Positions 1,089-37,244 of a stretch of DNA of 64,000 bases are shown here, piece after piece. Source of the DNA: Cladophialophora immunda (Eukaryota; Ascomycota; Eurotiomycetes; Chaetothyriales; Herpotrichiellaceae); the NCBI RefSeq assembly GCF_000835495.1, contig NW_015622546.1, forward strand, positions 250,883 to 314,882, read 5' to 3'. The translations under genes were made by a program, and so were the position numbers. The notes below the pieces were generated by a model that saw nothing but the letters and a program-made list of their open reading frames with translations, was not told where the DNA came from and ran no database searches. Each line of letters starts with the position of its first letter. Position 1 is the stretch's first letter.

Positions 1089-2596
1089 TTATTCTTGAAA
1101 GCTGTTGAGCGCGATGTTGGACGAATTCTTCGACGAGTCTCCTACTCGGCTGTACTGTCGGCGGTGGCGGAAGGCCATGAACTCGAGACCGAGGGCCAGC
1201 ACGGCCGAGACGATGCCGACGGCGATAGCAATGCCGGTGTCGTCGCTGAGCAAGGCACCCCTAGGTCAGACTGTGCGTTAGCGGCCATGGTTGCGTGTCA
1301 GCCGTGAGCTCCGTGTTTACTTACAGGATGGCATTGACCATGCCCGCGTAGATGAGAACGCGGCCAAGCCAGATGTGGAAATGCGAGGGGACCGTGCGGC
1401 GGCCGACCTTCTTGTAGTTGAGGTGGTGGATATAGCCCATGACGACCTGGAAGGAGAGGACGGCGACGACGCAAATCCCCAGGATCTGATGGGTCTCGTC
1501 AAACGCCGAGTATTCGACCCCGGTGATGCTCAGGGCGATCGCTACCGCCAGGCCAAGGTATGCCCCGACCGTCGCGAAGAGTTGGAGCATCCAGTGCACC
1601 TTGAAAGCGATCGACCATCGCCACCGCAGCCCGAGGACGCCCACGGGGAACACAATGACGAATGCAACGCCCAGGAGGATTGCGTGTGCGTAGACGAGGC
1701 CGTGGTAGTAGTCGGGCTGACCTTCTGCCGAGACACTGGACGTGCCTGATATGCTTGGGACGGTGGCGACTGCGTTCTGTGTCGCGGTCATGTCGACAAA
1801 GAAAACGCCTGCGGACGAGGGTCAGCAATACATCCCCACCGGTCGCGCTACGAGTGTGGTTAGACCGACCATAATGTGAATGTTGGTCGATTTCTGCATC
1901 GATGGAGTTCGACTGGACTTGCTCATTCGGCCCAACCGCCCATATCCATGATTGCTTCGTTCTTGTCACATCGACTTTGTTGAACTTGTGGCTTGAGCTC
2001 TGGTACCACTGTATAGTTGCTGTCATCTTTCCGTTCTCGACCTCGGAGTTGAGCACGGTTGCATTGACACCAGACACGGGCTCCGGCGTGTCGTGGCCAC
2101 TGTTGAATGAGGATCAGTTCAGGGACTAGCGACAGCCCATCTATGTGGGATGTGGTATCTGGTACGGACCTCGAGGTTCTCACGCTAAGCGTGACGCCTG
2201 TACATGCTTGTCAGCGGCTGCCAGGGTTGGAGTACGCATATAAATAGAGACGGAAGTACTCACCATTGCCTTGGCCAGAAGGATATATAATGAACATGAG
2301 GGAGTCGTGCATCCGGTCGCCGGTGCCTACTGCGGCCCAGCCGTAGGACGTGGGCGCCGAGATCTGCATGTTGAACTCCTCGGCGGCGGCGTTGCCATTA
2401 TTGCCGGTAGAAGATATGGCAAACCCAAAGTTCTCTGATTTCTCGTAGAATTGTGCCTGTTTGGCGAAAGAATAGGCCGCGAATGCTAAAGTGGTTCTCG
2501 GTCAGCTCGTTGAGGGTGGAAAAAGTATTGGTATATTTTGAGCCACTCACACGACAGGAGTCCAGAATATGCAACAAGTCTCGTGAGCATCTTCAT
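1089..2596 (-). CDS. DOMON and cytochrome b561 domain membrane protein
   Basis: Predicted transmembrane electron-transfer protein that would pass electrons across a membrane to an outside acceptor. I read five exons on the minus strand. The first, from 2596, codes a signal peptide (MKMLTRLVAYSGLLS). Exons at about 2480–2260 and 2204–1870 code a DOMON (CDH-cytochrome-like) domain (SAPTSYGWAAVGTGDRM, then GHDTPEPVSGVNATVLNSEV). The next exon (about 1820–1320) codes a b561 core with paired histidines (YYHGLVYAHAILL, KVHWMLQ, DETHQILG, PSHFHIWLGR). A last exon adds a helix and the tail SFQE before a TAA at 1089. The donor after HSHYG reads GTCGGT, slightly weak. The domain order matches the fungal iron-reductase-domain family. 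A TATAAG lies about 115 bp upstream of the start. Confidence 0.85.
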
Positions 2597-3670: not shown

Positions 3671-4510
3671 TCATTTCTTTGATGGTAGATAAATGCACAA
3701 CTCGTCCTCCCCTATCTCCACACTTTCGTACTCGACCTCTTCCTCCAAGTCCTCGTCGATTTCGTCTTTCGTCGCTTCGACAAGGACCAATGGCTCCTCC
3801 CTTTTGTCTCCGGCACCGGTCAGGAACGCGCTCTTATGGCTAAATAGCTCTGTCTCTACCCCTGCCCTTCGAGTTCGAATAACATTGAGCCGATACGCGA
3901 ACACAATCCCCGGTGCCGTGTCGTACGAGTCGGTAACCTTCTTCTGGCCGTCGTGCTTCACTTCTCCCCCAATCTCAATGGGCACAGTCGCTGTGGGCGG
4001 CCCGGACCCCTCGGCTGTCACTGTAAAATTGGAGGAATTTCCCTTCGCTACCGTAAATGATGACGTGGCTATGCGCAGTCCCGAGACTATGTAGACGGCG
4101 CGCTTGCCAAACATGCCGGAGTCGATTTGGGCGCGCACGGCTGGCAGATTGGCAATTGCGGTCACCGTCTCTGGCATCAGCGGATCGGAGAAAGACTGAA
4201 TTTCATGATCTGTTTCACTGTAGTCGATGCTATTACTCTTCCCGATGTCAGCGCTGGCTGATGCAGAGGCGGTTCCTTCGAACTTGAACCACAGGCTCTG
4301 GCTAGTGGACCGCGATTCTGAGCGGCTGTGGATGTGATTTGGTTCGACGATAGTCTTGGTGGTTGGCAGCTTGATATCGCTTGCCGTGCCGGAGCCTACA
4401 GCCGCGAGGACAGTGGTCGGCTTGAACCAGTGTGGAATTACCATGCCTAGACGGAGCGGCCCATCAGTGGTGAAGGTGAAATCCGGCGGGAGAAACCACG
4501 TTCCAGGCAT
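3671..4510 (-). CDS. Gasdermin-like pore-forming cell-death protein (HET-Q1/RCD-1 type)
   Basis: Predicted executor of regulated cell death: fungal gasdermins sit inactive in the cytosol until a protease removes a short C-terminal tail, then insert in the plasma membrane. The single exon gives 279 residues, close to the length I recall for Podospora HET-Q1. The N-terminus (WFLPPDF, then DGPLRLGMVIPH) fits my memory of the family start. Residues about 60–210 are beta-rich and serine/alanine-rich (SLWFKFEGTASASASADIG), with helical segments, as in gasdermin pore domains. After about residue 215 comes a short linker (ELFSHKSAFLTGAGDKREEP) and a strongly acidic tail (250–270). That layout suits a removable inhibitory tail. 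There is no signal peptide. The neighbouring upstream gene is a subtilisin-type protease on the same strand, the usual partner. No Pfam search was run; the assignment rests on resemblance plus context. Confidence 0.72.
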   Translation of the reverse strand: MPGTWFLPPDFTFTTDGPLRLGMVIPHWFKPTTVLAAVGSGTASDIKLPTTKTIVEPNHIHSRSESRSTSQSLWFKFEGTASASASADIGKSNSIDYSETDHEIQSFSDPLMPETVTAIANLPAVRAQIDSGMFGKRAVYIVSGLRIATSSFTVAKGNSSNFTVTAEGSGPPTATVPIEIGGEVKHDGQKKVTDSYDTAPGIVFAYRLNVIRTRRAGVETELFSHKSAFLTGAGDKREEPLVLVEATKDEIDEDLEEEVEYESVEIGEDELCIYLPSKK

Positions 4511-4965
4511 CGCGGGCTCGTGTCGTTGCTAAGGGTCTGAACTGGATATTCCACGGGTTGGTTTTGAAGCATCAAAAGAGACAAGCTGAACTCTTGTTGC
4601 ACGCCAAGCCATCTCGCATGAACCACCAGGTGACTTTTTGAAACTGTAATCCTTTGAGGGCTTTGGGCGGCCGAGGGCATCAATGGCCGCTGCGTATGAA
4701 TATCTTGTGGTGATATAGTTTTGCCTCGCGTTTAGCGACCCTGTTTTCCAACGTGTCTAGCCTTCAAATGGTGCTCAGATGGAGATTTCTGTTTCTTAGA
4801 CGGCGTGCCGCCGGGTTGCCATTGCTCATCTCCCATCTAAAGTGGCGAAGACATGTTTGGTTTCTGTCGTGTCCCGAACTTCAAGGGCTTGGTGCAACAA
4901 TTCCCGGTAATAACATGTAATTCTTATTCATGAAACCAGCAGCTTGCTACGCTAGCATACGTGGA
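4511..4965. other. Spacer between protease and gasdermin-like genes
   Basis: A 455-bp spacer that should hold the 3' end of the protease transcript and the promoter of the gasdermin-like gene. No other gene is visible. Confidence 0.5.
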
Positions 4966-7900
4966 CTATTCCTCGTTATTCATTTCTTCAACCACCCGGC
5001 AAACGGAAACAAAAACTTGCAAATCTTTCTCTTTCTCTCCCCAATACCATATGGGGTTGATAAATTGCTCTCGATAGCCAGTATTTAGCGACATGGCATG
5101 CAGCATCCGCTCCATCCCTCTCTTCGTGTAAAGCTTAGCGCACTCCTCTTCAGATCCCTTGAGTTTGAGCAGAGACGGCAGTGCTGCGATGTACGAGAGG
5201 GTCATGGCGACAATCCCAGCCGCAATCGCGGTAGCAATCGACGTTCCTGCGCCGAGATCCACTTTGGGGAAATGATCTTGGATTTCTTTGGTGATGGACG
5301 GCGGGATGTTTGTGCCGTAAGTGCCAAGTTTCATAGGCCCTTTTCCAGGATGGGTAGGATTTGACCGTAAGAAAACTCCTTCCGAATCGGCGGCATGGAT
5401 GGGTATGACGTCTTTGTGACTGGCTGGGAAATCTTTCCTTCTATCCCACGAGTTCCCAGCGCTTGCGAGAAACAATACGGAACCATTACGATCCTTTCTG
5501 ACTTTTTCGATGGCATCTGAAATGACCGTATGTGTCCTCCCGGGCTTATCAGGGAACCCAAAGGACATGGAAATGACATCAACTTTCCATTCAGGGTCTA
5601 ATCCCGCGTGCTCGATTGCCTGGCCCGTGGTCAGCACGTTGTCAAGGAACAGCTGCGTAGCGCATACCTGGGCAATATTCTCCTCGTTGTTCTCCAAGTC
5701 ATCAGTATTCTCTGCCACACGAATCAAGTAGATGTCGACTATTGGCGCAACATGCATGAGCAGTCGTGCCATGAATGTGCCGTGGCCAAACGTATCAATT
5801 TCTCTCTTTGATCCTGCAGCGGCGAAGTCCTTCCAGCGCTTAAGCCTGTTTGACCTTTGGGAATTTTGAAAGAAAGGCAGATCTGCCTTGCATCCGGTAT
5901 CCAGGATCGCAACTCGAACGGGGTTTTCGATCTTCGCCAGTCGTCGACAGCGCGTTATGTGCCTCGCTATAACCTGGAGATCCTGAAGGAACCCCTCTGT
6001 ACTGCTTGAATGGCCAGAGTGGAACGCAGGGTGTGTGCTAGTTTCCCTCCAGAAGCATTGGAGCTCCTCATTGTCCGCCAACATCGATTTGCGGCGTATT
6101 TTCTTCCGTATTGGGACCAATGGCATTTCTTCCGTGTCCTCGAATCCTACCGTAGCTAACCAAAACAAGGGGCGGACAACCTTTCGGTACAGAGCATCTC
6201 TCCTTTCTGACAGCGGCGAATCCTTGGCGTCTTCATTGTCATCACCCGAATGGCTTCGGTGTCGGGATTTTCGGCGTTCTGCAGTCTCTTTGAAGCTGGC
6301 AGAGTCCAAACAGCTCTCAACGGCTTCTATAAAGTAGTCCTTCCACCGAAAGCCATCCCACCTCGCATCCTTCAATTCCTTCACCTTCATCTTGGCTTTG
6401 ACATGGGCCGTGTTTGTATGTGCGAGAAGGCTGAGTTTTGGGTCGTGTTCCAGTCCCAGTGCCTGACCAAGGCCGATTTCCAGAAGAACAATACCCAAGT
6501 AGAGTATTCGTGGATACCGATGAGTGTACTGATCCTTGTCGTAAAACTCTGCTGGCGATTCCTTGTACCGGGACCCGAAAGGGAACGAAATGAAGGCTCT
6601 CAGGGGGATTTTTTCTGACGGTGAGAATTTCCCATCGAGAGGGATGAAAAAGATGTCTTCACTTGTCCATCTAGCGTTCATTAGTTCCGAATTATAAAAC
6701 CGCCAGAAGGCTCGAGCTATGACATAAGACAACTTGATCTTGTGCTCGACCGTAAATTCGGTCAGGTTGAACAATTCCGAAAGTGGGACGCCACAACCTG
6801 ATATAATATGCTGAAGCTGCCCGGGTTCTCGCCGTTCGTAAAGATGGCAGTCTTCATCCAGATCTGATATGTTCAGCCAGTACTTTGTACGCAACAAACG
6901 AAAGAGAATATTCAGCATTTAGAGTTTGCCTCCATGCACTAGGAATCCCACCCCTTGTATTTACTGCATGAGAAAGGTGCATCTCTTGATGCTTTCTCAA
7001 TTTGGCGAAAAATCACAAAAGTGGTAATTCTGTCCAAAGAATTGGATCGTTTTCTCCTCTCCCGTATAGCTTCTAGCCCTAGAAGGGAAAAAAAAGGGGG
7101 GGGGGGGGGTTGGTGAACAGGTTGCTGTTACTGTTTCTGGAACCCGTGGCTATCTTTCCCGGAATCTGAGAGATACCGCCCCAAGGAATTCTCCAGGTGG
7201 ATCATGAGACAACGATATTCGAATGGGAAAGATTCAAGCTCGAGAGGAGCGTCTCCAGCGCCACCAAAATCCAGGAATAATGAGGTTTCAGCTTACCCAG
7301 ATAAATTTTCGCATAGTTTGGATTTTCGAGATGCTTGCACATTTCACCATACTCCATCAAGGATGACTCAGAAGGATCAGAGTCGACTCTGTTGTCCTGC
7401 TGGAACTTCTGCGTGGCTTTTGGTTCGAGATCTTTTCTGCATCTTATTAGCTGATTTTGACTACCTAAGCCCTAGCAGGGTTTCTCAGGGAAGAAACATG
7501 TCTGTCACACTCAAGGGAAAGATGGGTCTCTGGTCGTCAGGGACTTTTAACACCTGGAGAAACGACAACACGTTTACTTTTCCCCATGCACTGCGTATGC
7601 TCAGGTGAGAGAATCACGTCTCCCGACGACTGGGAGGGGCTTTCGAAGATAAGCAATAACTTACATTGGAACGCTGATGGCGACTTCCTGCCAGTAAGTC
7701 ATCTTCGAAGTTGCGATTATTATGTTGAAAAGGGCCAGTTGGTTTTTGGAGCGAAATCCAGAGTTGAGGCAGAGCCTGGTGAGGTGCCAATCATTTTCCG
7801 TTGAACCCTCGAGCACCGGCATCACATGATATTCTTGCACACAAGATGCATGGCTCTTGACTCCATTGAGGAGCAGCTTGTGAACTCCATCGGGATACAG

Positions 7901-8471
7901 ATCCCTCGCAAGAGGCCTTAGGTGTGAGTAAGCGTCGAAATCAGCAGTAGTACCCTGCAGTTCCCGTGCATTCTTCGTGAGTCTGTCGGAAAGCTCGATA
8001 AAACGTGATAGGAAAGGCTCGATGGTACCGGGTCGTTCTTTGCAAAACTTGGTAATTGATTGCCGCACTCGATCTTTCGAATCTTCGACTTTAAACAGTT
8101 GAACGAGAACATCGCGCAGCTCCTGGGGGCTCTTCTTCAAATAGAGGCGTCCCCTCGGAGCTGAAAGCGTTTGCCACTAATTTTTTCATGACTTTACTTC
8201 GCTGGTCCAACGCTCGGGTCCGTGACTGAATTACCTTGCAGATTTCTAATAGATCATGCAGCGCCCGCAGAGAAAGATTTTGAGTGTCCGGCGGAAGTTG
8301 ATAGAGACCCTGAGTCGACAAATGTGGTGCGATGTAGAAAAGTCGAGAGGCAATGTTGGCCGCTAAAGCGCTCTTGTTCGCGACGGCGATGGGAAAGAGA
8401 ACATTGGATGCCTCCAGAGCCACTGAGGCCAGGAGTTCCGAGGCGAAAACGCGGTTTTTCGAATGCTCCAT
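4966..8471 (-). CDS. DUF7580–subtilisin (S8) protease, probable gasdermin activator (HET-Q2-like)
   Basis: Predicted intracellular serine protease. The simplest ORF (6918–4966, 650 aa) is N-terminally truncated. In-phase splicing joins 8471–8235, 8122–7665, 7436–7297 and 6863–4966 into 910 aa. The new N-terminal half has the layout of the fungal DUF7580 family: helices, a DPDGVHKLLL–CVQEYH segment, WQEVAISV, GEMCKHLE, then DLDEDCHLYERREPG, ending in YPRILYLGIVLLEIGLGQ. The C-terminal half is an S8 domain. In the 650-residue numbering its triad is Asp340 (VAILDTG), His379 (FGHGT) and Ser560 (GAGTSIA), with oxyanion Asn489 (SAGNS). There is no signal peptide or propeptide, so it should act in the cytosol. 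It lies just upstream of the gasdermin-like gene on the same strand. Weak points are a long third intron (433 bp) with a second possible acceptor at 7080 and the uncertain first exon. The S8 call is firm; the full gene model is moderate. Confidence 0.75.
7088..7109. repeat. A8–G14 homopolymer tract inside a predicted intron
   Basis: Eight A followed by fourteen G on the plus strand. In the sense of the protease gene this is a C14–T8 pyrimidine tract followed by CCCTTCTAG, which resembles a strong 3' splice site. It lies in the predicted third intron, and its length may vary or be a sequencing artefact. Confidence 0.8.
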
Positions 8472-8740: not shown

Positions 8741-11659
8741 ATGGCTTCCGCCTTGGATCTCACTTCAGAAGGATCTCCGACTGGCGCGGTGGTGAGGTCA
8801 TGCTTCGAGGAGTTCAAACAATGCATCCAACAGCTGGAGGGCAAAGACAAGATCCATGTCCAGACCAGATTTGCTGATCTGCGGCTCTGGGCTGACAGCG
8901 TTGGGGCTACCGCGCAAGCGAAGGCTTCTCTGGATTGGAGATTCCAGCACCGACCCAATGACCTTTATTTCATCCGGGGACATCTTTCAATGCTGGAAGG
9001 CTTTCTGAAGGAATGCTTTGCCGCGGCAAACGACAAATCTGATATCTGCGATATAATTGCCAATATCGACTCGACTGTGGACAGCCTGGCCTTCATAGGA
9101 GTTCAGATTCGGCGAAGTGGCCGCAAATCTCGACTTCGAAGAGCGGATGATTCCTTTGATCAGAATCGGGACGAGTATCGCAAGCTCAGAGCGCATCTCG
9201 CCTGCATCGTCGCGTCGAAGCCAACCAAGGAGGGCAGACCGAAAGACGAAGGGAAAGAGATCCACAGTATTGACTACTTTGCCAATCTGAAACTCCCACA
9301 AATCCAGGAACGCCTCGTCGAGGCCAACCTAAGACGGCGACATAGGTTCATAGAAGCCCAGAGACATTCTCACGGGCTGAAGGATCCTTCCACGAAGCCT
9401 TCTCATACCATATCCCAACAACAGTTTATCGCCATGGCAGCAATCCACACAAATCAGGAAGTTAGCCCGATGCAGGGCAAGAGGGAAGCTACTACAATGC
9501 GACAGAAACAAGCACATCCGACTGGTCCGAGGACAGACGTTCCCACGATGCCCGCGACATCGGCTTCAGGCATAGATTCGACATGGGGAGGACTTCGGAA
9601 TAAACGTCAGCCCGGATCAACAGTCACTCGAATCACGGCCATTACGGCTGCTGCAAGATATCCCAGGGCGCAAACTTTATCGAATCCGGACCAGCAGTTG
9701 GTCAAATGCCCCTGTTGCTGTCAAGCCATCCCGGCCACTGAACTGGAAGACAGTCAATGGAGGTAAGAGTTTCTTCCACCGTTGGATCAGGATGCTAATG
9801 AAATCAGAAAACATGTGGCGAACGATCTATGCCCGTACACCTGCGTCCTCGAGGACTGTCCAACGCCGTACAATCTCTTTGTAACGCAGAAGGAATGGAA
9901 CGACCATGTCATGAACGACCATCCCCCTCAATGGCAATGCCCTTGCTGCGAAGGCGACCCTCCTATGTTCAAGTCGCTCTCTAGCATCATAAGTCATATG
10001 GTGTCCAAACACCCGAATGTTAATTCTAACAATCTTGAGGACTTGTTATCAAGTTCAGAAATCAGTGTGATGGGAATTACAAAATGCCCCTTATGTGATT
10101 CTGAGGGGCCTCAGGACTCGCCAGATCTCGTCGAACATGTTCTGCATCATGTACATGAGTTTTCTCTCCGTTCCCTTCCTTGGCCCATGGATCCAACTAT
10201 CAGCCTAGAGAAACCCGTTGGGATATTCGATATGAGTCATGCAGAGAAAATCATCAGAGATGATACAGGCAATGAACATATTTTCCACATTGCTGAATGG
10301 GCTGAAACTGTGGTTCCAATCTTCGACCTGAGCCGCGGGGTCAAAATCTTCAATGATCCTGAAGGCAACGAGCTCGATATGGACATTGCTGGGTGGCCCG
10401 AAAACACTACACTGGAGGGCGAACTATCGTTGCAACTCTGCGATATCGACCAGAATCCACCAAAGACCAGCGAAGAAGAGTCGACGCTAGACACCCCTTC
10501 CAACAAGGATTATTTCTCTCAAAATGAGTATTTCGCGGATGAATCTAGCGATGGCCGGTTTCCTTCTCAAACCTCTCGCTCGTCCCAGCAGACGCAAATT
10601 ATTGACTTCTTCGGTGAAAGCTTCCTTGAAGATCAATATGCGGATGACTCTTCCGAACAAGACCGCGACGTCAATGAAGCCTCTAGACCTCAGCATATGA
10701 CGATTCGGTATAAGAGGACGAGTGAGATCAAGGATCTTCAAGACGACATTAAATTGGCGAGACGGAAAGTCGAGTCGATACCGGAAGACCACCCTAATTG
10801 GGCCGGATGGTTAAACACTCTCGGGATTCGACTCAGCGATAGATATTCAAGAACGGGATCATTGGCAGACCTCGAAGAAGCCATTCAAATTATGAAGACA
10901 GCAGTCAAAGCGACACCAGCAGACCACGCAGACAAGGCGGAACGGTTGAATAACCTCGGAATCCAATTCGGCAAGAGATATACCAAAACTGGAGAGATGG
11001 CAGACCTCGAATACGCCATTCAAATCATGCAAAATGCCGTCGAAATGACACCAGCAGACCACTCAAATAGAGCAGCCGTTTTGAGCAACCTAGGGAATTC
11101 CTTCCGTCATATGTTCGAGTTGACTAGGGGTCTCAACGACATAAACGAAGCCATCGGTTTCGGCGAGGAAGCTATAGCTGTTACTCCTCACGACCATCCA
11201 GACAGGGCAGCTATTTTGAGTCACCTGGCAAATTCCCTCTGTCACAAGTTCAAGCGGACTAGTGATCTCCAGGACCTAAACGAAGCTATTAGTATAGGAA
11301 AGGAAGCTGTGGCTGCTACTCCTCACGACCATCCGGACGGAGCGGCTATTTTGACTAACCTAAGCAATTCTTTCTACCATAAGTTCGAGTGGACTCATGA
11401 TCTCCAGGCCCTAATCGACGCCATCAGTATAGCAAAGCAAGCTGTATTTGCTACTCCGAACGACCATCCAGACAGGGCAGCTATTTTGAGTCACCTGGCA
11501 AATTCCCTCTATCACAAGTTCAAGCAGACTAGTGATCTCCAGGACCTAAACGAAGCTATTAGTATAGGAAAGGAAGCTGTGGCTGCTACTCCTCACGACC
11601 ATCCGGATAGAGAGGCCATTTTAAGTATGCTTGAATTTGCAAAATCCGGGTATGATTAA
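8741..11659 (+). CDS. C2H2 zinc-finger protein with TPR-type repeats
   Basis: Probable signalling or sensor protein; exact role unknown. Two exons (8741–9762 and 9808–11659) are joined by a 45-bp intron with branch-like GCTAATG. The junction restores the family motif SQWRKHVANDLCPYTC. The N-terminal third is helical (SCFEEFKQCIQQLEGK, then QTRFADLRLWADSVGA). The middle carries C2H2 fingers (CPYTCVLEDCPTPY…H, CPCCEG…H, CPLCDS…H) ending in HEFSLRSLPWP. The C-terminus has six 45-residue repeats (type DHPDRAAILSHLANSLYHKF) plus a truncated seventh. Such repeats often precede a CHAT protease domain in fungal immune receptors, but none follows here: the protein stops 20 residues into the seventh unit. 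ATG 8741 was chosen because MASALDLTSEGSPTGAVV looks like the family start; 8546 is an alternative. Confidence 0.75.
11202..11608 (+). repeat. Nearly identical TPR-coding DNA units
   Basis: The roughly 137-base block at 11202–11338 recurs at 11472–11608 with only a few differences, an offset of 270 bp or exactly two 45-codon units. Units 4 and 6 of the protein therefore differ at only about two residues (C/Y and R/Q), while unit 5 between them is clearly different. This points to a recent duplication or gene conversion of repeat units. Confidence 0.85.
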
Positions 11660-34621: not shown

Positions 34622-37244
34622 TCAAACGCCTCCGTCGGAGAGCTGTACGGTGCCTATGGGGACGGAGGGCAAAGAAAGTTCCGTCAGGTCATGGTTGACC
34701 GGCCGTTTCTCATCCAACGGCTCCGGGGGCGCGTCGCGGGTCTCGTTGACCACTCGGAGGGATAGTCTGGGTGGTTTTGGGTCGTCCTTCTCCCGGTCAA
34801 GCTCAGACTCCCGGGCCGTCGACATGGCGAGCTCCTTTTCTCGCAATCGGATGACGCTCTCGACCAAGGGCGCCAGGCCTCCCTTGCCGCGCTTCTCGTT
34901 GTAAATGCGGTTGTAGAACTTGGTGCCGCTGAAAAGAGAGAGCTCCGCCGCAGTGGCTCCGTTGTAGTCCCTCACGGTCGGGTCGGCGCCGGCGTCTAGG
35001 AGGATGTCGACGATTTCCGGCCGCTTGCGCCACACGGCAGCATGCAGCGCTGTGCCGCCATACCTGCCGGCACGTTCATCAAGGTCGGCCCCCGCATCGG
35101 CCAGGCTCCTCACGGTCTCCGTCAGGCCGTACGACGCCGCGTAGTAGAGTGGCCGAGCGTTCTCCAGGTCTGTGTCGGGGTGGACGTAGCCATGCCACGA
35201 GTCAAAGAGGACAACCTGGAGCCAGAACAGGAACTTGGGGTTCGAGCGCGGGGTCATGAGCCTTCGAATGAGAGGAACTAGCTCGGTCTCCGCGCCCGAC
35301 ATCTGGACATGGAACGGCCAGTTTTGCGCCGCATATCGGAGAAGAGGGAACTCGGAGAGCGTCCACATGAAATCTGTCTTGAAGAGCGGACCAGCCGAAA
35401 AGTCCTCAAGGAGCATGTAACGGATACAGGCCTCGGCCATGATACGGTGCGATGCCCGTGTGGGAATGAAGAACTGGGAAGAAGGGTCGAGTCGTCCGGT
35501 GAGGAACTCTCGAACCGAATGATGGGCCAGGCGAGCGGTTTGTGAAACCGGATTGAAGGTGATTAAGCTGCGGCAGATCTCGAGGACGTCACTGGGATCA
35601 TTGAGCTTCGAGTCAGGGTCTAGTTCGTCAAAGTCCGGCTCAAGGACCACGGCCTCAGCAAGTTCGGGCAGGGTCAGTGGAGTAGAAGCATGAGCAAGCC
35701 ACAGCAGTGCCCGTGTAGCAAAGGGGATATCTTCCCGAGCGATGCTGTCGATGATGCGCAAATACGAAGCCTCAATGCTCAGAGGGAGCTGATTGAGCGC
35801 CCGTTTCAGAGCAGCATCGGTCCTCAACCTAGACATTTCGTCCAGTTGGCATTGTACCCAGCGAAACCTTTCAAAAAAGTTAGCAATGTAGGTGTTGGCT
35901 AAGTTAAGCTGTAGTTCACATCAATGACTTACATCCCGTTCGAGTCTGTTCGCAGTGTCATTTCCACGAAAGCCTTCATATTCTCGCTCATCCGCCGAAG
36001 TCGTGGGTCACTGCTGATCCTCATCTTAATGTACACGCTGATATCCTGTTCACTCGCTTGTTCTGGAACAGGAATGTCTGGGAATCCGAGGAGATATCGA
36101 CGCAAATCCACTTGCAGTCGACTGCTGATAAAAACGCGCAGCGGGAATTTCCCAGATCGCACAATCGAGGTCAGAAAGTCACCTACTACGGAGTAATCGG
36201 GAGACTCATCCAGACCGTCAATGACAACTGTTGCCGAATCGGTGCTTTCCAGCAGCTGTTGCAAGAAGGACTTCAACTCGCCCAGACTTGGCTGGCTGGG
36301 GCTGCCGAGACGCCTCGAAGCTCGCCTGTAGGCGTCAACGATATCGGTGGGTAGTCGTGGGAGTTCTGAACAGAATTGCTTGACAATGGCGCCAAAGAAG
36401 GTCTGCGGTGTCAGGCTTTCCATTGTGCTGGCATCATAGTAGAAATAGGCCAACAAAGAGTTGGCTGGTTTTGTCTCCAAGAGATGATGGATGAGGTAGG
36501 ATGTGGCTATGGTCTTCCCTGAGCCCGCGTGGCCATGCATCCAGAGCAGAGAAGATCTGGCTTTAGACCAGTCGAGGAATGTAGGGTCGTCGAGGAGCCA
36601 GTTGCATGTACCGTTACAATAAAGTTGATATGCTCGCTGGAACTGGGCCTCATAATGATGCTCGCACAGCCAGTGCAAGATTTCCCTTCGTTCCTGCTCT
36701 GCATTGTTGTACGTGATCTCGGTCAAGGTATCTGAGACGGTTTCCAGTGTGGCACTTTGGCTCATCAGTGCCTCCCTGTGCTTGCCTTTGAGTAACGTTT
36801 CCTGTGCGGTGAGTATACTTGAACTTACACTGAAAGGGAATTCAACGACAAGGACAGCGAGTTTTTGTGCCTCTCAACGGCTGTGATGAGTTCGTCGGTC
36901 TCGTTCTTGCGGAGTGGCCATAGAAGGCGATTGATTGCGCGTTTACCGGGAGATTTGCTCAAACCAGGGGAGAATTTACGCAACTTCGTGGACACACTTT
37001 CCAGCACAAGTTTGCAGTTCTTCAACGGCGACTCCAGCTGGTACCCGGGCAAGTTCATCTGCGCTGCCAGGCCTTGGACACCCAGTAAGATGCCGTTCAG
37101 GCTGGTGACTTCAGACACGAGTCGCCGTGCTTCGTCCGGGGCCTCAGCCACCGCACAACCATAGCAGTAGCATTGGCTGATGACGGCACCGGTCAGGGAA
37201 AGAAGACCAGCAACCCCGGTGACGATGGAAAACGGGTCAGTCAT
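34622..37244 (-). CDS. NLR-type receptor: Fungal_N/Helo-like, NACHT, ankyrin
   Basis: Predicted STAND-type intracellular receptor linked to non-self recognition or cell death. Three exons (37244–36829, 36775–35933, 35867–34622) give 834 residues. The N-terminal domain (MTDPFSIVTGVAGLLSLTGA…, APDEARRLVSEVTSLNGIL) matches the fungal N-terminal signalling domain related to Helo-like pore-formers. The NACHT NTPase has Walker A LWMHGHAGSGKT and Walker B ATVVIDGLDE. A winged-helix-like segment follows (RWVQCQLDEMSRLRTDAALKR…). The C-terminus has about two or three ankyrin units (LYYAASYGLTETVRSLADAG, ALHAAVWRKRPEIVDILLDAG), few for this class. It ends in a charged tail. All junctions are in phase. 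Confidence 0.9.

What the first reader, a model, noticed from the sequence alone, without database searches (positions are those of the whole stretch)
3671..8471. Gasdermin + subtilisin protease pair: a likely cell-death / allorecognition module
Seen: a 279-residue protein that I read as a fungal gasdermin, and just upstream, same strand, a protein with a complete S8 triad. Known: in Podospora, HET-Q1 (gasdermin) is cut near its C-terminus by HET-Q2, a subtilisin-like protease, giving cell death; fungal gasdermin genes are often next to protease genes. Inference: this pair is a homologous but unstudied locus, with the DUF7580 part as the possible sensing half.
Basis: partly seen in the sequence, partly recalled or inferred. 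Interest (0 to 1): 0.9.

Follow-up and report, generated by a model that had tools for sequence, protein, structure and literature searches.

The report
Fungal gasdermin and its protease trigger
A mould genome carries a pore-forming self-killing protein beside the protease that probably switches it on, a type of pair already known in fungi, here with an extra zinc-finger neighbour gene that recurs beside related genes.

The parts
3671..4510 (-). gasdermin gene, 279 aa, single exon
3815..3850 (-). candidate cleavage segment, residues 221-232 (ELFSHKSAFLTG); F223 at 3842-3844, F229 at 3824-3826
   Evidence: F223 and F229 each kept in 90 of 91 aligned sequences, itself included (Y in the other), although residues 219-237 have pLDDT under 50; cleavage itself is inferred
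3674..3823 (-). C-terminal acidic tail, residues 230-279, 5.67 kDa, pI 4.05; proposed inhibitory peptide
   Evidence: inhibition inferred by analogy to HET-Q1
4966..8471 (-). Q2L-type protease gene, 912 aa, exons 8471-8235, 8176-7665, 7436-7297, 6863-5668, 5619-4966
   Evidence: the 7665/7436/7297/6863 boundaries are refined by eye for split codons
7799..8471 (-). N-terminal helical region, about residues 1-205, including intron 1
   Evidence: AlphaFold secondary structure
6166..6819 (-). DUF7580 region (residues 312-529), candidate pseudokinase-like input domain
   Evidence: Pfam; kinase likeness weak
5185..5919 (-). S8 protease domain (residues 612-840), including the 48-nt intron 5667-5620
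5899..5901 (-). catalytic Asp618
5782..5784 (-). catalytic His657
5452..5454 (-). Asn751, oxyanion-hole position (role recalled)
5239..5241 (-). catalytic Ser822
8741..11659 (+). divergent zinc-finger gene (exons about 8741-9762 and 9808-11659), C-terminal TPRs
   Evidence: start codon and intron read by eye
11069..11626 (+). TPR-coding tandem array, period 135 bp, 4.1 copies, 77% match
   Evidence: Pfam TPR_10 E 7.4e-19

Best explanation
A regulated cell-death module of the fungal gasdermin/Q2L type. The 912-aa protease is kept inactive by its N-terminal helical and DUF7580 parts. When these sense a trigger, or are relieved by a partner (possibly the divergently encoded zinc-finger/TPR protein), the S8 domain cuts the neighbouring gasdermin in the loop around F229. 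That removes a ~5.7-kDa acidic tail, and the N-terminal part oligomerises into membrane pores that kill the cell. Shown here: gene structures, gasdermin fold (predicted model), intact protease residues, repeated pairing, conserved loop motif, zinc-finger/DUF7580 linkage in this genome. Inferred: autoinhibition, cleavage, its site, pore formation, the roles of DUF7580 and of the zinc-finger gene.
Against: No experiment. The gasdermin model is moderate (pLDDT 70.7) and no Pfam family matches it above cut-off. 91 of 120 gasdermin rows show no shared contig length with the listed S8 rows; lists were cut at 120 and many contigs are short, but at least six named fungi (Phaeosphaeriaceae PMI808, Ustulina deusta, Xylaria curta, Neoarthrinium moseri, Fusarium lateritium, Magnaporthiopsis poae) list a gasdermin and an S8 relative with different longest contigs, which may mean other assemblies, paralogues or no linkage. 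The Mantel correlation is partly expected from shared species history. The whole low-confidence loop 219-237 is only slightly better conserved (0.66) than the protein (0.64); other blocks (1-10, 131-140, 201-210) are more conserved than the motif. Kinase likeness of DUF7580 is weak (hhalign probability 8.8%). Zinc-finger linkage was tested in one genome, with exceptions at C3:3.63, C1:5.15 and C4:4.21 Mb. One DUF7580-S8 gene (C8:715-717 kb) has no gasdermin detected within the fetched 9.5 kb.
Confidence: 0.8

Rival explanations
1. A true allorecognition (heterokaryon incompatibility) locus like het-Q, with incompatible alleles segregating in the species.
For: Same two protein families as HET-Q1/HET-Q2; fungal gasdermins have been recruited for incompatibility in at least two ascomycetes (PMC12881547, section 20).
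Against: HET-Q1 and HET-Q2 are idiomorphs; here both are present together in one genome. HET-Q2 is 388 aa, this protease 912 aa. No population data were available either way.
Confidence: 0.12
2. The protease and gasdermin are independent neighbours, the S8 gene being an ordinary housekeeping or secreted subtilisin.
For: The genome has about 15 distinct S8 loci (17 matches merged by hand), and 11 of them have no detected intact gasdermin beside them.
Against: All four gasdermin loci found lie next to an S8 gene with a DUF7580-like region; pairing recurs in other fungi; a DUF7580 fusion is not the layout of an ordinary subtilisin (recalled).
Confidence: 0.03
3. The 279-aa protein is another beta-rich pore former (MACPF/CDC-like), not a gasdermin.
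For: CDC toxins and MACPF proteins also appear in the structural lists at lower scores.
Confidence: 0.02

Closest known systems
Q2L-fGSDM two-gene clusters (Clave et al. 2022, not held, known here only through reviews PMC12881547, PMC10197012, PMC10989679)
   Same: Gasdermin gene adjacent to a multidomain S8 protease; the reviews give about 80% or more of fungal gasdermins clustered with a protease, about 60% with S8; 'other predicted kinase-like domains' are mentioned among the fusions.
   Different: This one has a helical N-terminus plus DUF7580 and a divergent zinc-finger/TPR gene. 'DUF7580' occurs in 0 papers of the library. 'Zinc' and 'C2H2' do not occur in PMC12881547 or PMC10989679, and in PMC10197012 'zinc' occurs only in a reference title.
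HET-Q1/HET-Q2 of Podospora anserina
   Same: Gasdermin of 278 aa versus 279; subtilisin-like protease; a cut at a Phe that removes ~5 kDa from the C-terminus fits the motif here.
   Different: Idiomorphs; HET-Q2 is 388 aa, this protease 912; HET-Q1 is cut at F238 leaving 40 residues, here the predicted F229 leaves 50.
RCD-1 of Neurospora crassa
   Same: Closest solved fold and only PDB sequence-profile match.
   Different: RCD-1 is not controlled by cleavage but by the meeting of two allelic variants (PMC12881547, figure legend).

Membership tests
Fungal gasdermin (fGSDM) | Gasdermin pore-forming fold | tested here: met
   AlphaFold model plus Foldseek/VIA: gasdermins occupy the top ranks
Fungal gasdermin (fGSDM) | Sequence homology to a characterised fungal gasdermin | tested here: inconclusive
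   Profile of 91 sequences matches only RCD-1 chains in the PDB, best E 0.016; no Pfam match above cut-off
Fungal gasdermin (fGSDM) | Short C-terminal tail in place of a large metazoan-type repressor domain | tested here: met
   about 50 acidic residues after the conserved loop; that it inhibits is inferred
Fungal gasdermin (fGSDM) | Pore formation and cell killing | not testable with these tools
   needs expression
Q2L protease | Protease domain with catalytic residues | tested here: met
   S8, D618/H657/S822
Q2L protease | Gene clustered with a gasdermin gene | tested here: met
   455 bp between the coding regions here; also at three other loci of the genome and in other species
Q2L protease | Extra domain that could sense a trigger | tested here: met
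   DUF7580 plus helical N-terminus; sensing itself untested
Q2L protease | Cleaves the neighbouring gasdermin | not testable with these tools
   needs biochemistry
HET-Q allorecognition system | Gasdermin and protease are idiomorphs | tested here: not met
   both on one contig of one assembly; definition from PMC12881547
HET-Q allorecognition system | Incompatibility between strains | not testable with these tools
   no strain data
Protein kinase fold (DUF7580) | Profile match to kinases | tested here: inconclusive
   hhalign E 0.0038 for one comparison, probability 8.8%, collinear; reverse direction E 0.0074; five control comparisons E 0.019-0.57; 22 of 30 kinase loci used, the 8 with stops dropped
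C2H2 zinc-finger proteins | Conserved Cys/His positions | tested here: met
   ten Cys/His columns (five Cys, five His) invariant in six loci
C2H2 zinc-finger proteins | Match above a Pfam C2H2 cut-off | tested here: not met
   best zf-C2H2_2 E 0.023, below cut-off

The most novel reading that the evidence does not exclude
DUF7580 genes of this fungus belong to an old divergent gene pair with a zinc-finger partner, and the gasdermin loci are the version of that pair in which DUF7580 is fused to a protease that fires a gasdermin. In other versions DUF7580 follows different N-termini, some resembling membrane-targeting helices by eye. If so, one input system (zinc finger plus DUF7580) would drive exchangeable killing outputs, pyroptosis-like and perhaps necroptosis-like, and the zinc-finger/TPR protein would be the missing sensor or control partner of many fungal gasdermin clusters.
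Probability: 0.4. Interest if true: 0.75.

Novelty: new variant of a known kind. Interest (0 to 1): 0.5.

Why it matters
What activates the sensors of fungal gasdermin pathways is called a major open question in the 2025 review PMC12881547 (section 20). A third gene that sits beside all four gasdermin loci found in this genome, and beside 16 of 25 DUF7580-type loci, is a concrete candidate for that missing control part and can be tested by deletion in a laboratory ascomycete.

Tried and rejected
Pfam for the gasdermin: nothing above cut-off. A wider profile search (A3) was meant to reach named HET-Q1/RCD-1; the 120 listed of 145 hits bore no such name. HELL/HeLo nature of other DUF7580 N-termini: seen by eye, no Pfam support in the ten ORFs scanned; the N-terminal profile of the protease found no clear relative among 21 ORFs (best E 0.034). 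Recent segmental duplication as cause of the zinc-finger linkage: rejected, blastn at E 1e-3 finds no DNA similarity among five loci; old duplication of the pair is likely, so the binomial figure (1.5e-42) treats copies as independent and should be read as retained linkage. Counts behind that linkage: the 18 include the window's own gene; without the DUF-like region near C6:2034300 that I added by hand it is 15 of 18; one of the 16 partners (C4:649802) scores below Pfam's cut-off; a further zinc-finger gene at C4:4.21 Mb (N-terminal query E 1.1e-7; core E 0.045) has no DUF7580 hit near, so counting it gives 16 of 19. Horizontal transfer was considered: in both trees Cladophialophora falls in an unresolved 22-row clade with Xylogone, Phialocephala, Clarireedia and Xylaria relatives, but also with Endocarpon and Bipolaris, and apart from Talaromyces/Penicillium; old paralogy with loss is not excluded and no housekeeping control was run (class names of these fungi are recalled). 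The g and g2 profiles contain paralogues, so only the A1 scores count for the paralogues.

Rows dropped: alignment A1 holds 91 of the 120 listed gasdermin rows (29 left out by eye, mostly odd lengths, fragments and near copies); A2 holds 51 of the 120 listed S8 rows, chosen as long rows with both domains, so 'DUF7580 in 51 of 51' is partly by choice; one S8 row without a contig length was left out; one pair (P0241/P0209) was added and one of two S8 rows on the Xylogone contig was chosen.
Full report
What is there. The window lies in contig C6 (positions 250883-314882) of a 42.2-Mb genome. The protease matches PV07_09762 of Cladophialophora immunda, whose longest contig has the same 4,175,021 bases as C6, so I take the genome to be that species, a chaetothyrialean ascomycete. 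The region 3671-8471 holds exactly two minus-strand genes 455 bp apart: a single-exon 279-aa gene and, upstream of it, a five-exon 912-aa gene.

The likely switch. Residues 219-237 are modelled with pLDDT under 50, yet within them residues 221-232 are better conserved (mean column identity 0.76) than the protein as a whole (0.64), and F223 and F229 are each kept in 90 of 91 sequences, with Y in the other. The full loop averages 0.66, and other parts of the protein are more conserved than the motif, so this is suggestive and no more. A conserved motif in a loop that is not well structured is what a protease site would look like. The tail after F229 is 50 residues, 5.67 kDa, pI 4.05. HET-Q1 (278 aa) loses about 5 kDa after F238 (PMC10989679, passages seen; PMC12881547, section 20 read). 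The exact bond here is a prediction.

Pair conservation. In this genome, searches started from each of the four gasdermins return the same four places, and all four lie 1.1-1.7 kb from an S8 hit (15 distinct S8 loci in 42 Mb; chance about 0.0018 per locus). A profile built without the paralogues scores them at E 4.1e-19, 1.2e-17 and 2.6e-17. All four neighbouring S8 genes are preceded by a DUF7580-like region (window, C1 and C4 by Pfam; the C6:2.03-Mb one only by a profile at E 3.8e-6). A fifth place, C1:2.66 Mb, is a 164-aa frame with, by eye, only gasdermin-like ends (A1 profile E 0.0037), beside an S8 fragment. In databases, 29 of 120 listed gasdermin rows, the window's own included, share a longest-contig length with one of 119 S8 rows, eight on contigs under 30 kb; twelve shifted controls gave 0 or 1. 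Eight pairs have consecutive gene numbers, for example PAC_11569/PAC_11568 and GJ744_002993/GJ744_002992 (read). The other 91 rows showed no such sharing, and at least six named fungi list both proteins with different longest contigs (see evidence against). Over 30 linked pairs the two distance matrices correlate at r 0.93 (0 of 2000 permutations reach it), which shared species history partly explains.

A third gene. Starting at 8741 on the plus strand, divergent from the protease, is a zinc-finger gene ending in TPRs (TPR_10 E 7.4e-19; 135-bp tandem array). Its zinc-finger core has 18 genome hits at E<=0.001, its own included (21 listed). Of these 18, 16 lie divergently 2.2-3.7 kb from a DUF7580-type gene, including all four gasdermin loci (15 of 18 without one DUF-like region that I added by hand). 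Exceptions: C3:3.63 Mb (no DUF7580 near), C1:5.15 Mb (same strand, 5.1 kb), and a gene at C4:4.21 Mb that is clear only by its N-terminal part (E 1.1e-7) and has no DUF7580 near; with it the count is 16 of 19. From the other side, 16 of 25 DUF7580-type loci have such a divergent partner and two more have a hit within 6 kb in another arrangement. Ten Cys/His columns are invariant in six loci, while the DNA shows no similarity among five loci at E 1e-3, so the linkage is old. It could be tested only in this genome. I found no report of it: 'fungal gasdermin' with 'zinc finger' gave two papers, whose passages concern metacaspases and a reference title; 'DUF7580' gave none; and a term search of the main text of three reviews found no zinc-finger partner. 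Clave et al. 2022 itself was not held, so it may be described there or in its supplements.

Interpretation. The pair is a gasdermin with its Q2L-type S8 activator, a kind said to cover most fungal gasdermins (over 80% clustered with a protease, PMC12881547 section 21; ~80%, ~63% with S8, PMC10197012 section 15). It is not a het-Q-like idiomorph pair, because both genes coexist in one genome; a constitutively active protease would be lethal, so the N-terminal half presumably restrains it (inference). The third gene is the novel part and my best candidate for sensor or control partner.

Scores. The pair alone would merit about 0.3; the zinc-finger/DUF7580 linkage raises it to 0.5.

Noticed in passing
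window 34625-36873 (-): Neighbouring frames with NPHP3_N/NACHT (E 6.1e-37) and ankyrin repeats: an NLR-like gene in the same window.
   Followed up: no
L029 4729-5220 (-), G000 C1:2.66 Mb: 164-aa frame with, by eye, only gasdermin-like N- and C-terminal ends (A1 profile E 0.0037) beside an S8 fragment: probable relic of a fifth pair.
   Followed up: partly
L024, G000 C8:712000-721500: DUF7580-S8 gene with a divergent zinc-finger partner but no gasdermin detected in 9.5 kb: a module with another substrate, or a gasdermin too diverged to see.
   Followed up: partly
L017, L020, L022, L023: DUF7580 genes without S8 whose N-termini look like hydrophobic membrane-targeting helices by eye; no Pfam support.
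   Followed up: partly
L016 3243-3716 (+): Alpha/beta-hydrolase-like frame downstream of a DUF7580 gene (E 0.00099, below cut-off).
   Followed up: no
window 3671-8471 and relatives: In both gene trees the Cladophialophora pair falls in an unresolved 22-row clade with leotiomycete and sordariomycete fungi (classes recalled), apart from Talaromyces/Penicillium; Endocarpon and Pseudocyphellaria share one 4-row clade in both: possible cassette transfer, not tested further.
   Followed up: partly
window 1321-1821 (-): Cytochrome b561-type membrane protein frame near the gasdermin.
   Followed up: no
G000 C5:2470405-2472726 and C7:3309057-3311237: DUF7580 and protein-kinase Pfam hits lie in one open frame of 1027 and 1026 aa: a kinase next to a DUF7580 in one protein.
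   Followed up: no
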